Below are positions 30,622 through 35,102 of a stretch of 64,000 nt of DNA, in pieces. How positions within the stretch are numbered: position 1 is the first letter of the stretch; each line of letters opens with the position of its first letter. The stretch spans positions 1 to 64,000 of the forward strand of contig CACMMN010000003.1 in NCBI GenBank assembly GCA_902614905.1. The letters run 5' to 3'. This stretch comes from an uncultured Pelagibacteraceae bacterium. GTDB taxonomy: Bacteria > Pseudomonadota > Alphaproteobacteria > Pelagibacterales > Pelagibacteraceae. Position numbers and translations under genes: made by a program. The notes under the pieces are model-generated. The model was not told the origin of the DNA. It saw only the letters and a list, made by a program, of their open reading frames with translations, and searched no databases.

Positions 30622-32712
<2,091 letters not shown>

Positions 32713-32842: not shown

Positions 32843-32922
32843 TGGCGGAGAGAGTGGGATTCGAACCCACGAAAGAGTTGCCCCTTAACACGCTTTCCAA
32901 GCGTGCGCCTTAAACCGCTCGG
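32843..32922 (-). pseudogene. Truncated tRNA-Ser(GGA) 3' fragment (att-site repeat)
   Basis: These 80 bases are identical to positions 34211-34290, the last 80 bases (including CCA) of the intact tRNA-Ser gene, in the same orientation. The first 10 bases of the tRNA (the 5' acceptor strand and start of the D arm) are replaced by unrelated sequence, so it cannot fold a full acceptor stem and is not functional. It is best read as the chromosomal 3' end displaced when an element integrated into the tRNA gene. Confidence 0.93.
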
Positions 32923-32975
32923 TTTACTTGTATTGATTATACTTGTTTATTTTTTTTGAATTTTCAGGATTTAAT

Positions 32976-33001
32976 TCTAGTGACGACAAGACGACGACAA
33001 G
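32976..33001 (+). repeat. Putative recombinase arm-type site, gyrB-proximal end
   Basis: Contains GACGACAAG at 32982-32990 and again at 32993-33001, an 11-bp spacing. The 26-bp stretch matches 34141-34166 at 22 of 26 positions in the same orientation. The G+C-rich composition stands out against the A+T-rich surroundings. Paired direct repeats inside each end are typical of tyrosine-recombinase arm sites; this is inference. Confidence 0.55.
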
Positions 33002-33002
33002 A

Positions 33003-33131
33003 TTATTTAGCTTTTTTTGACTTTTTTAGAATATCTAAAAATTGTTTTAAATACGTTTCTTCAAATTTAAATTTGTTTTTTGATTTATATTTCTCAAGGG
33101 TTTTTTTAAGATATTTTTCAATGATTGTCAT
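33003..33131 (-). CDS. Possible 42-residue basic peptide inside the mini-element
   Basis: An ATG frame of 42 residues, highly charged (many Lys and Glu) and predicted helical, beginning MTIIEKYLKKTLEKYKSK. It ends beside the arm-type repeat. No family is recognised and no good ribosome-binding site is seen. It could be a small DNA-binding or accessory protein, the remains of a larger gene, or chance. The plus-strand frame across the same bases (32956-33141) is less convincing. Confidence 0.3.
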   Translation of the reverse strand: MTIIEKYLKKTLEKYKSKNKFKFEETYLKQFLDILKKSKKAK

Positions 33132-33247
33132 TTTACAATAATAACATATACTCTTAATGTGTTTATTTGGCAATTTTTATCTGGAACTATTTTATTTATA
33201 ATTTTGTGTTTTGGGTTGTTTTATATTGTTAAATTGCTTCTAGGTTT

Positions 33248-34111
33248 TTAAATTCTATTGTCTCGTCTAACCTCTAAAAACTTTTCCATAATTTCTAAAT
33301 CTGAATATCTTAAATACCCTTCTCGCCATACTATATTATTATTATTTAAAATTTGTTTAATTTGAGAGCCCCACTCTATAGTTAAAACTTTGTTTATTTT
33401 TTCAAGAGGTTCTAAAAGCCAAATTGCCATTCCAAGGTGTTTAAGATTATTGCGATTTGGCTGAAAATAAAAACTTGTTTCATTTATATACCTTCTTAAG
33501 TTTGTTTTTCTTATTTTGTTTTGTAAATCCTGTAAAAAATTACAATAATCTGGAAATTCTTTTAAATTATTTTCATAAAGGCTACCTCTAAGTCTTAAGT
33601 ATTTAAATAAATTTCTATTATTAATCTCTAATTCTTTGTTTGCTAAAATATAAAACGCTCTTTCCCAATTATGGTATGGCGTTAAACCTGATCCAATATG
33701 ACAAGGCCAATTATGTTGATTTGCAAATAATGAGATTTTCACTAAGTCTAGATTTGGATCATTTATTAAAAATTGAAATATTTCATTATTTAAATGCTCC
33801 ATATCAATTTTTAAATTATTGCTAGGGTTTATAACTTTTTTTATTGTTTCAATTATTATTTCAGATGGACAGTGAAACCATTCTTTCCCTTTTTCACGAG
33901 GGTATTTTCTGGAGATTTCATGATGAATTTTTTTTTCAATAATTTCTAAACCATTATCAAGAGAAAATGTTTCTAAGTATTTAATATTGCCTACTACTCC
34001 AGATGTATTCAGACTTTCAAGTCTATTCTTAAAATTTTTAGTTATTCCAACTTTAAATAAATCTTTACCCTTATCTCTAGTATTGTAAGCTATGTATATT
34101 CCTCCAGGCAT
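33248..34111 (-). CDS. GIY-YIG/T5orf172-domain protein, cargo of the tRNA-Ser element
   Basis: A 287-residue protein. The N-terminal 90 residues match the T5orf172/Mug113 branch of the GIY-YIG nuclease superfamily: 'GGIYIAYN', then 'LFKVGITKNFKNRLESLN' (K-V-G in the YIG position, conserved Arg), then 'LEIIEKKIHHEISRKY' and 'KGKEWFHCPSE'. The remaining 190 residues, with several Trp-containing segments ('HNWPCHIGSGLTPYHNWERAFYIL' region), are unassigned. Such domains occur in phage and mobile-element proteins, as nicking or homing-like nucleases or DNA-binding proteins. It is the only sizable gene in the element, so it may act in transfer, regulation or defence; which one is unknown. Confidence 0.78.
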   Translation of the reverse strand: MPGGIYIAYNTRDKGKDLFKVGITKNFKNRLESLNTSGVVGNIKYLETFSLDNGLEIIEKKIHHEISRKYPREKGKEWFHCPSEIIIETIKKVINPSNNLKIDMEHLNNEIFQFLINDPNLDLVKISLFANQHNWPCHIGSGLTPYHNWERAFYILANKELEINNRNLFKYLRLRGSLYENNLKEFPDYCNFLQDLQNKIRKTNLRRYINETSFYFQPNRNNLKHLGMAIWLLEPLEKINKVLTIEWGSQIKQILNNNNIVWREGYLRYSDLEIMEKFLEVRRDNRI

Positions 34112-34140
34112 AAAAATTTATTATTCTTAATAGTTTTTCA

Positions 34141-34166
34141 TCTAATGACGACAAGTCGACAACAAA
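34141..34166 (+). repeat. Putative recombinase arm-type site, tRNA-proximal end
   Basis: Related to 32976-33001 (22 of 26 identical). It has GACGACAAG at 34147-34155 and a degenerate copy, GACAACAAA, at 34158-34166, again with 11-bp spacing. It lies 29 bp before the GIY-YIG gene start and 44 bp from the tRNA repeat. It is the mirror partner expected if both arms of an attP site were retained on integration. Confidence 0.55.
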
Positions 34167-34210
34167 ATAGATCTTAACGTTATTTTAAAAATTATAAAAC
34201 ATCAAATAAT

Positions 34211-34300
34211 TGGCGGAGAGAGTGGGATTCGAACCCACGAAAGAGTTGCCCCTTAACACGCTTTCCAAGCGTGCGCCTTAAACCGCTCGGCCATCTCTCC
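34211..34300 (-). tRNA. tRNA-Ser (anticodon GGA)
   Basis: A 90-base serine tRNA with encoded CCA (34211-34213 complement). The acceptor stem GGAGAGA pairs with TCTCTCC, the discriminator is G, the anticodon loop is TTGGAAA with anticodon GGA, the long variable arm is present, and the T loop is GGTTCGAATCC. It would read UCC and UCU codons. It starts only 1 bp after the DUF4422 gene's stop, so it is probably processed from the same transcript. Its 3' 80 bases are the attachment repeat of the mini-element. Confidence 0.96.
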
Positions 34301-34301
34301 G

Positions 34302-35102
34302 TTAAAAATTATCTAATTGCACCCAATTAATTTCTTTGAAACGATAATTTTTTTTAAACCAATAAGATAGATATCTTTCTGATAGGTATGCAAATAATCT
34401 TTCTGTGTCGTAACCTTTTAAATGTTTAAATTCAAACTTTTGTTCACAAGCTTTTAACCAAGGAAATAAATTGTTGAACCATTCTTTAATAATATCTGGT
34501 TTAGAAATAAACATGATATGGGGATTGAAAGAATTATTATTTTTCATAAAATTTAAAAAATTGTCTTTATTTTTTTCATCTAGTAAATCAATCGCCTTTT
34601 TTAAGTTACCGTAACCATGGTGCATATCGAAATGTAAATAAAGGTTTTGTTTTTTTTTATTAAATATAATAGAGGGATCTTTTATGAGATTTTTGAAACC
34701 TCTTTTAATAATTTTCATTTTTTTTACACCCGATACATTTAAAGGTTTGCAAATTAATACATCATAGTTTTCCCACTCTGATGGAGCCTCATCAAATAAA
34801 AAATCATTAAGATTTGATTTATTTACTAAATGTGTTTTTTCTGTATTAATTAAATATCTTCTTTTCTGACAAAAACCTATCCAATCATTTTTATCAGCCT
34901 TGTCTAATAAATTTTTCCAATACCAATAGTGAAAAGTTAGTTCTGAGTAATATTTCTCCTTATGATATATGTTATCGCCTATATCACATCTCAAATAATT
35001 TTCTGGCGAGTCTTCTTTACCTACCCAACATAAATTATGGTTATTTTTATTAAGAAAATTTACTTTTTTATCGGTTACACAAAAAAATTTGATGGGTTTC
35101 AT
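34302..35102 (-). CDS. DUF4422-like putative glycosyltransferase
   Basis: A 266-residue protein. It resembles DUF4422 glycosyltransferases: 'YSELTFHYWYWKNLLDKADKNDWIGFCQKRRYL' shows the S-E--YWiwKN and I-G-x-x-x-R-R pattern in short motifs, and the end has 'YDTERLFAYLSERYLSYWF', a family hallmark. It would act in surface polysaccharide synthesis; sugar specificity is unknown. It overlaps the methyltransferase gene upstream by 4 bp and runs directly into tRNA-Ser. Confidence 0.75.
   Translation of the reverse strand: MKPIKFFCVTDKKVNFLNKNNHNLCWVGKEDSPENYLRCDIGDNIYHKEKYYSELTFHYWYWKNLLDKADKNDWIGFCQKRRYLINTEKTHLVNKSNLNDFLFDEAPSEWENYDVLICKPLNVSGVKKMKIIKRGFKNLIKDPSIIFNKKKQNLYLHFDMHHGYGNLKKAIDLLDEKNKDNFLNFMKNNNSFNPHIMFISKPDIIKEWFNNLFPWLKACEQKFEFKHLKGYDTERLFAYLSERYLSYWFKKNYRFKEINWVQLDNF

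What the first reader, a model, noticed from the sequence alone, without database searches (positions are those of the whole stretch)
32843..34300. A 1.37-kb integrase-less element inserted in tRNA-Ser(GGA), with retained att arms and one GIY-YIG-type cargo gene
Seen directly: an 80-bp perfect direct repeat (32843-32922 and 34211-34290) of the 3' end of tRNA-Ser, with the intact tRNA on its 5' side and an unusable fragment on the other. Known: integration of phages, including pelagiphages, and islands by tyrosine recombinases into tRNA 3' ends gives exactly this layout. Inferred: everything between is an inserted element. Its tiny size, lack of integrase and single sizable gene (T5orf172/GIY-YIG) make it look like a satellite or mini-island moved by a recombinase supplied in trans, a possible undescribed class of SAR11 hitchhiker.
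Basis: partly seen in the sequence, partly recalled or inferred. Interest (0 to 1): 0.9.

Follow-up and report, generated by a model that had tools for sequence, protein, structure and literature searches.

The report
Integrase-less tRNA-borne mobile gene cassette
In SAR11, the commonest ocean bacteria, a tiny 1.3-kb piece of DNA carrying one probable defence gene has jumped into a tRNA gene using conserved recombination ends but no recombinase of its own; it belongs to a widespread, apparently undescribed family of such cassettes that swap small genes between cells.

Summary
Confirmed and widened. An 80-bp perfect repeat of tRNA-Ser(GGA) bounds a 1,288-bp insert with a 287-aa GIY-YIG (T5orf172) gene and no integrase. 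Inside both ends sit tandem 11-bp-period repeats (TGACGACAA-type) placed like integrase arm sites. At least 21 cassettes of 0.72-1.86 kb with this anatomy were found in SAR11 genomes, in tRNA-Ser, tRNA-Thr, tRNA-Arg and tmRNA genes: shared ends, unrelated cargo (type-IV-restriction-like nucleases, PADLOC defence candidates, proteases, secreted proteins), no integrase, sometimes in tandem. Twelve relatives have an empty tRNA-Ser site with the ~100-160 bp gap to gyrB that the focal site has without its insert. A related species carries the same element at 98.6-99.4% identity although flanking genes are ~90% (dS 0.013 versus 0.59), with the right border at the att site: recent transfer. Integrase-bearing, satellite-like elements in other SAR11 genomes share target and arm sequence with the tRNA-Arg and tmRNA cassettes, supporting a recombinase in trans. 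The helper for the tRNA-Ser group was not found; excision was not observed. It works like a cis-mobilizable element or integron cassette, but fully meets none of the known definitions.

The parts
32923..34210 (.). the inserted mini-element (1288 bp between the tRNA copies)
   Evidence: Absent from 12 empty-site relatives; present at 98.6-99.4% identity in AG-912-F23 with diverged flanks
34211..34300 (-). intact tRNA-Ser(GGA) gene, target restored at one end (attL-like)
   Evidence: ARAGORN, Rfam RF00005 60.7 bits
32843..32922 (-). displaced 80-bp 3' fragment of tRNA-Ser (attR-like), 100% identical to 34211-34290
34146..34165 (+). arm-type site pair at the tRNA side, TGACGACAAGTCGACAACAA (11-bp period)
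   Evidence: same position in seven tRNA-Ser cassettes (41-45 bp from the tRNA)
32981..33000 (+). arm-type site pair at the distal side, TGACGACAAGACGACGACAA (11-bp period)
   Evidence: 77-81 bp register in six tRNA-Ser cassettes
34171..34178 (-). conserved GTTAAGAT box between tRNA end and arm pair
   Evidence: shared by seven tRNA-Ser cassettes; used as part of a query that hits only Pelagibacteraceae
32923..32947 (-). conserved distal junction AACAAGTATAATCAATACAAGTAAA next to the tRNA fragment
   Evidence: shared with G248 and others
33248..34111 (-). cargo: 287-aa T5orf172/GIY-YIG-type protein
   Evidence: Pfam T5orf172 2.4e-12; weak PADLOC PDC-S57 4.3e-7 over the GIY-YIG domain only
33003..33173 (-). 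possible 56-aa (or 42-aa from inner ATG) basic small protein
   Evidence: ORF; one synonymous difference in AG-912-F23; no credible family
30622..32682 (-). gyrB, chromosomal flank on the distal side
   Evidence: gyrB-tRNA-Ser adjacency conserved in relatives
34302..35102 (-). DUF4422 glycosyltransferase-like gene, chromosomal flank on the tRNA side

Best explanation
A non-autonomous, site-specifically integrating gene cassette. As a circle it would carry arm sites, a tRNA-Ser 3' core and arm sites (a complete tyrosine-integrase attP) plus cargo, but no integrase. A tyrosine integrase made by another element in the cell (pelagiphage or integrase-bearing phage satellite) binds the arm pairs and core and inserts the circle into the 3' part of tRNA-Ser(GGA); the cassette's own copy restores the tRNA and the displaced copy is left near gyrB. 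The same system at other tRNA/tmRNA genes and with other cargo makes a family. Cargo is one to three genes, often nuclease or defence-like; the focal GIY-YIG protein is probably a restriction-type nuclease. Shown: structure, shared ends, empty sites, cargo exchange, recent transfer, tandem arrays. Inferred: integrase in trans, circle intermediate, vehicle between cells, nuclease function.
For: Perfect 80-bp tRNA repeat. 12 empty sites with 102-162 bp gap; 160 bp in the window without insert. 21 cassettes of 723-1859 bp: arm tandem within 130 bp of the left end in 21/21 and right end in 17/21, against 0.6% of interior windows, at near-constant distances whatever the cargo. Ends align, interiors do not, except the same element in AG-912-F23. 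Element 98.6-99.4% identical to AG-912-F23 where gyrB is 89.8% and spacer 75%; identity falls at the 3' end of the tRNA fragment. Mini at tRNA-Arg (L104) and integrase-bearing 6.5-kb element at tRNA-Arg (L190) share the copy start (position 33) and 19 identical arm bases TGACGACCTGATGACGAAA; tmRNA mini L085 and integrase element L193 share TGACGCCA-type arms. In 4 of 10 unrelated phage contigs with the same arm pair whose nearest ORF was tested, that ORF is an integrase 31-230 bp away. Tandem arrays in L083 and L310.
Against: No integrase with TGACGACAA arms at tRNA-Ser was found in 399 same-genus genomes, viral contigs or GTDB contigs. No read-level evidence of excision or circle. Most cassettes were found through one arm, so only the other end is an unbiased test (the window and L037 were found by the tRNA repeat alone). 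The left border of the recent transfer is not sharp: the 100 bp next to the intact tRNA differ by 10% between the two carriers.
Confidence: 0.8

Rival explanations
1. Relic: an autonomous phage satellite or island once integrated, and deletion removed its integrase and most genes, leaving an immobile CIME-like remnant with two att ends.
For: Integrase-bearing 6-8 kb elements exist at tRNA-Arg, tmRNA and tRNA-Thr in SAR11. Decayed ends do occur (L022, L018, the second tRNA-Thr unit in the own genome).
Against: Sizes cluster at 0.7-1.9 kb, both arm pairs keep fixed distances in most copies, cargo is intact and unrelated between copies, and the focal element moved recently between species. Repeated independent deletions would not keep both ends and replace the cargo.
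Confidence: 0.1
2. The cassettes are spread by homologous recombination through the tRNA and flanking genes, with site-specific recombination only in the distant past.
For: gyrB-tRNA-Ser is next to a variable glycosyltransferase region, and several relatives have ordinary glycosyltransferase genes between tRNA-Ser and gyrB without tRNA copies or arms. Left border of the focal transfer is diffuse.
Against: Right border of the transfer coincides with the end of the tRNA fragment, followed by 75% identity rather than a shared gyrB-side flank. The same end architecture occurs at unrelated tRNA loci.
Confidence: 0.08
3. Tandem duplication of the tRNA or an assembly or amplification artefact.
For: Only that single-cell amplification can create chimaeras.
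Against: Same structure in an independent genome (L309) and in about twenty further loci with conserved internal arm sites. A plain duplication would not create arm repeats or foreign cargo.
Confidence: 0.01

Closest known systems
CIME (cis-mobilizable element; defined in PMC5704250)
   Same: attL and attR retained, no integration or transfer genes, can sit in tandem with other elements
   Different: CIMEs are defined as decayed ICE/IME relics; here a uniform size class with conserved arm sites, swapped cargo and recent spread, without any ICE/IME remnant
Integrase-bearing phage satellites: P4-like, PICI, VEIME, tycheposons (listed in PMC11389934)
   Same: tRNA/tmRNA 3' targets, tyrosine-integrase att sites, defence or accessory cargo; SAR11 elements L190, L194 and L201 carry integrase plus primase/helicase
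   Different: No integrase, primase, regulator or packaging gene in the cassettes; under 2 kb (tycheposons are described as 4-200 kb with a tyrosine recombinase, PMC10872708)
Integron gene cassettes / CALIN arrays (PMC11389934)
   Same: single small genes, integrase supplied in trans, site-specific arrays with exchangeable cargo
   Different: Core is a tRNA 3' end with phage-type arm sites; no integron platform; attC sites were not searched for
Additive flexible genomic islands, e.g. tRNA-Lys 20-bp repeats in Methylophilaceae (PMC10872708)
   Same: repeated tRNA 3' ends, units from 330 bp upward, mostly unknown genes, streamlined pelagic host
   Different: There the islands range to 42 kb and no integrase-less cassette family with arm sites is described in the passages read
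pSSVi, the integrase-less satellite that uses the integrase of virus SSV2 in Sulfolobus (from memory, not looked up)
   Same: no own integrase, integrates at a tRNA through a helper virus's integrase
   Different: archaeal plasmid-virus hybrid with its own replication genes

Membership tests
CIME | both att sites retained | tested here: met
   tRNA repeat plus arm pairs at both ends
CIME | no integration or transfer genes | tested here: met
CIME | derived by decay of an ICE or IME | tested here: inconclusive
   no ICE/IME gene remnants in the cassettes; origin unknown
Phage satellite (PICI/P4/VEIME) | own integrase | tested here: not met
Phage satellite (PICI/P4/VEIME) | replication or packaging genes | tested here: not met
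Phage satellite (PICI/P4/VEIME) | transfer in phage particles | not testable with these tools
   no virion reads; no match of the end patterns in viral contigs
Integron cassette | attC site and integron integrase in trans | not tested
   ends are tRNA core plus arm repeats; no attC model was run
Tycheposon | tyrosine recombinase carried; 4-200 kb | tested here: not met
   1.29 kb, no recombinase; size definition from PMC10872708
Tyrosine-integrase tRNA island | intact tRNA at one end and 3' fragment at the other | tested here: met
Tyrosine-integrase tRNA island | empty target sites in relatives | tested here: met
   12 distinct loci, gap 102-162 bp

The most novel reading that the evidence does not exclude
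SAR11 populations share an integron-like cassette system in which tRNA and tmRNA genes are the array platforms, phage-type attP (core plus two arm pairs) is the cassette end, and integrases of passing pelagiphages or their satellites move 0.7-1.9-kb units carrying one to three genes, much of it anti-phage defence, so that defence genes travel on the integrases of the parasites they act against.
Probability: 0.4. Interest if true: 0.92.

Novelty: new variant of a known kind. Interest (0 to 1): 0.82.

Why it matters
SAR11 genomes are streamlined and usually described as poor in mobile elements. A family of cassettes near the lower size limit of a mobile unit (attP plus one gene), at several tRNA genes and often loaded with restriction-like and candidate defence genes, would give a concrete route for fast gene turnover in the ocean's most abundant bacteria. 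It is testable: arm and core sequences are defined, matched integrase-bearing elements exist for tRNA-Arg and tmRNA, and reads over the junctions should reveal excision. It would also extend the 'hitcher' idea, known for MITEs and CALINs, to cargo-bearing elements of phage-type tyrosine integrases.

Tried and rejected
Chance or tandem duplication: rejected. First viral hits of the arm pattern (L005, L006) are chance matches inside coding genes of GC-rich contigs. tRNA-Ser 3' end in viral contigs: 66 hits, mostly phage tRNAs, none with TGAC arms and an integrase. An exact 32-nt tRNA-Ser stretch in viral contigs: none. SAR11 Xer-type 325-aa recombinase as helper: judged unlikely, since from general knowledge Xer proteins lack an arm-binding domain; not tested. 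PF13356 integrases: only 3 of 300 genomes; the one at tRNA-Thr (L201) has TGACTACAA arms, close but not identical to the cassettes there. The alignment A1 could not be used for the search for related loci. Homologues of the focal GIY-YIG protein in phage records or viral contigs: none. AlphaFold model of the cargo without alignment: mean pLDDT 37.7, unusable, so no fold search. PDB sequence search: only E of about 0.1 to ribosomal L10, chance. Gaps of ~1 kb with glycosyltransferase genes between tRNA-Ser and gyrB in other genomes (L010, L017, L040) were first taken for more elements but have no tRNA copy or arms.

Full report
Observation. The window holds a perfect 80-bp direct repeat, 32843-32922 and 34211-34290. 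ARAGORN calls only 34211-34300 (minus) as tRNA-Ser(GGA); the distal copy lacks tRNA positions 1-10. Between them lie 1288 bp with one long ORF, 33248-34111 (minus), 287 aa, T5orf172 E=2.4e-12 with a sub-threshold GIY-YIG hit, and a possible small ORF 33003-33173. There is no integrase in the insert, and a PF00589 search of the own genome (81.6% complete, 37 contigs) gives nothing, not even a Xer protein.

Arm sites. Inside both ends is a 20-bp tandem, TGACGACAAGACGACGACAA (32981-33000) and TGACGACAAGTCGACAACAA (34146-34165): two 8-9-bp units at 11-bp period, same orientation, at 45-58 bp from the tRNA copies. These are the only matches in the window at up to 3 mismatches, with none in shuffles. 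In the circular form they would flank the tRNA core as P and P' arms of an attP. This layout is what arm-binding tyrosine integrases use (general knowledge). Independent support: of ten unrelated phage contigs carrying the same pair whose nearest tested ORF was scanned, four have a PF00589 integrase 31-230 bp away.

Empty sites. gyrB lies next to tRNA-Ser in many relatives. Twelve distinct loci have 102-162 bp between them and no second tRNA copy; the window has 160 bp once the insert is subtracted. One relative (L018, 226 bp) keeps about 40 bp of the focal left end without arms, a scar.

A family. A search with the tRNA alone found a second case, G248 (L037): an 82-bp tRNA copy 1.5 kb away, three unrelated small ORFs, arms TGACGCCCATATGACGACCA and TGACGACCAACTGACGACCA, and the same distal junction (ATAATCAATAYAAGTA next to the tRNA copy). 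Searching the arm consensus in 399 same-genus genomes gave hits in 34. Reading those loci showed tRNA-bounded cassettes at tRNA-Ser, tRNA-Thr(TGT), tRNA-Arg(TCT) and tmRNA, one of them in the focal genome itself (contig C12, L089, a trypsin-like gene, followed by the decayed end of a second unit). An exact end pattern in 84,980 GTDB species genomes hit only five contigs, all Pelagibacteraceae, named by AG- isolate codes that I take to be single-cell genomes. In a census of 21 cassettes, sizes are 723-1859 bp (median 1336); arm tandems lie within 130 bp of the left end in all 21 and of the right end in 17, against 0.6% of interior windows; distances are nearly constant within each target. Ends align across species while interiors do not. 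Most were found through one arm, so the opposite end is the fair test. Tandem units occur in L083 and L310.

Movement. AG-912-F23 (L309) carries the same element. Its GIY gene is 98.6% identical (dS 0.013) and its distal end 99.4%, whereas gyrB is 89.8% (dS 0.59), DUF4422 90.5% (dS 0.45) and the gyrB spacer 75%. Identity falls at the 3' end of the tRNA fragment. The tRNA fragment there has three private changes, as expected of a sequence no longer selected as a tRNA. The left border is less sharp: the 100 bp by the intact tRNA differ by 10%, so some homologous recombination may have taken part. The GIY gene shows 10 non-synonymous and 2 synonymous changes, too few to interpret.

Who supplies the recombinase. 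Nearly all of the more complete SAR11 genomes checked have one ~325-aa PF00589 (Xer-like) protein; phage-type integrases are a minority (26 of 399). Three integrase-bearing elements with both ends resolved are 6.4-7.8 kb, at tRNA-Arg (L190), tmRNA (L194) and tRNA-Thr (L201), with integrase plus primase/helicase genes, so they resemble P4/VEIME-type satellites. The tRNA-Arg mini L104 and the L190 element share target, copy start (position 33) and 19 identical arm bases; tmRNA mini L085 and the integrase beside tmRNA in L193 share TGACGCCA-type arms. For tRNA-Thr, integrase elements exist (L201 with TGACTACAA arms; L214 beside a tRNA-Thr fragment) but arms are not identical to the cassettes'. 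For tRNA-Ser no integrase partner was found. So trans supply is well supported for two targets and inferred for the focal one.

Cargo. Cassettes carry SRA-HNH and MrcB_N-HNH nucleases, a DUF3427/NucS-like protein (PADLOC PDC-S02, 7.5e-58), Mrr_cat, a T5orf172 protein matching PDC-S57 at 1.1e-69, trypsin-like proteases and secreted proteins of unknown function. The focal protein matches PDC-S57 only weakly over its GIY-YIG domain (4.3e-7); a nuclease role is an inference. tRNA-Thr cassettes often start a gene with the same signal peptide (MKKLLGIVVLGLLLSGNAYA-like), a 28-61-bp module shared by otherwise unrelated cassettes.

Relation to known systems. It works like a CIME, a hitcher, or an integron cassette, but with phage-type att ends. 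It fails the satellite definition (no integrase, replication or packaging gene) and the tycheposon definition (size, recombinase). CIMEs are defined as decay products (PMC5704250), which fits the anatomy but not the uniform size, swapped cargo and recent transfer. A related pattern, additive islands with tRNA-Lys repeats, is reported in Methylophilaceae (PMC10872708). Searches of the open literature found no description in SAR11; subscription papers were not searchable, so novelty is stated with that limit.

Limits. No reads were available to test excision; the helper of the tRNA-Ser group is unknown; the vehicle between cells is unknown; the prevalence figure (at least 17 of 399 genomes, counted) is a lower bound because genomes are incomplete and arm variants such as GTGTCGT were not in the search pattern.

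Noticed in passing
L089 (own genome, contig C12) 2229-4210: Second cassette in the same genome at tRNA-Thr(TGT) with a trypsin-like gene and a different arm type (GTGTCGT), followed directly by the decayed end of another tRNA-Thr cassette.
   Followed up: yes
tRNA-Thr cassettes L083, L090, L091, L093, L095, L105: A near-identical signal-peptide coding module (MKKLLGIVVLGLLLSGNAYA) heads different secreted proteins in different cassettes, as if mature domains were exchanged behind one leader.
   Followed up: partly
L190 2353-8819, L194 4151-10598, L201 5058-12875: SAR11 integrase-bearing 6.4-7.8-kb elements with primase/helicase; two share a 141-145-aa protein (KDPTFN.YAKGGNVEN...RIKRLDLDSVAPGKAL) that has no PHROGs match; they look like SAR11 phage satellites.
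   Followed up: partly
L200 9541-11315 (G248): A 546-aa integrase lies beside a copy of the 5' 39 nt (not 3') of tRNA-Leu(TAA), so this element seems to integrate with the opposite polarity.
   Followed up: no
L103 3173-3248 and 7921-7960 (G382): A 40-nt copy of the 5' part of tRNA-Val(TAC) 4.7 kb from the intact gene, with an arm-like pair TGCCGACCACAGGCCGACCA between.
   Followed up: no
L010, L012, L017, L020, L022, L096 between tRNA-Ser and gyrB: Many relatives hold a single glycosyltransferase-like gene (about 1 kb) in this interval without tRNA copies, so the site is also a replacement-type variable locus.
   Followed up: partly
L043 4685-6960 (G309): Degenerate tRNA-Ser fragment (74%) 2 kb from the tRNA with methyltransferase-like and dioxygenase-like genes between (named from reading the sequences, not searched): perhaps an old cassette of another kind.
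   Followed up: no
window 33003-33173: Small basic ORF of the element, nearly unchanged in AG-912-F23, ending at the distal arm pair; an excision factor or a small partner of the cargo cannot be excluded.
   Followed up: no
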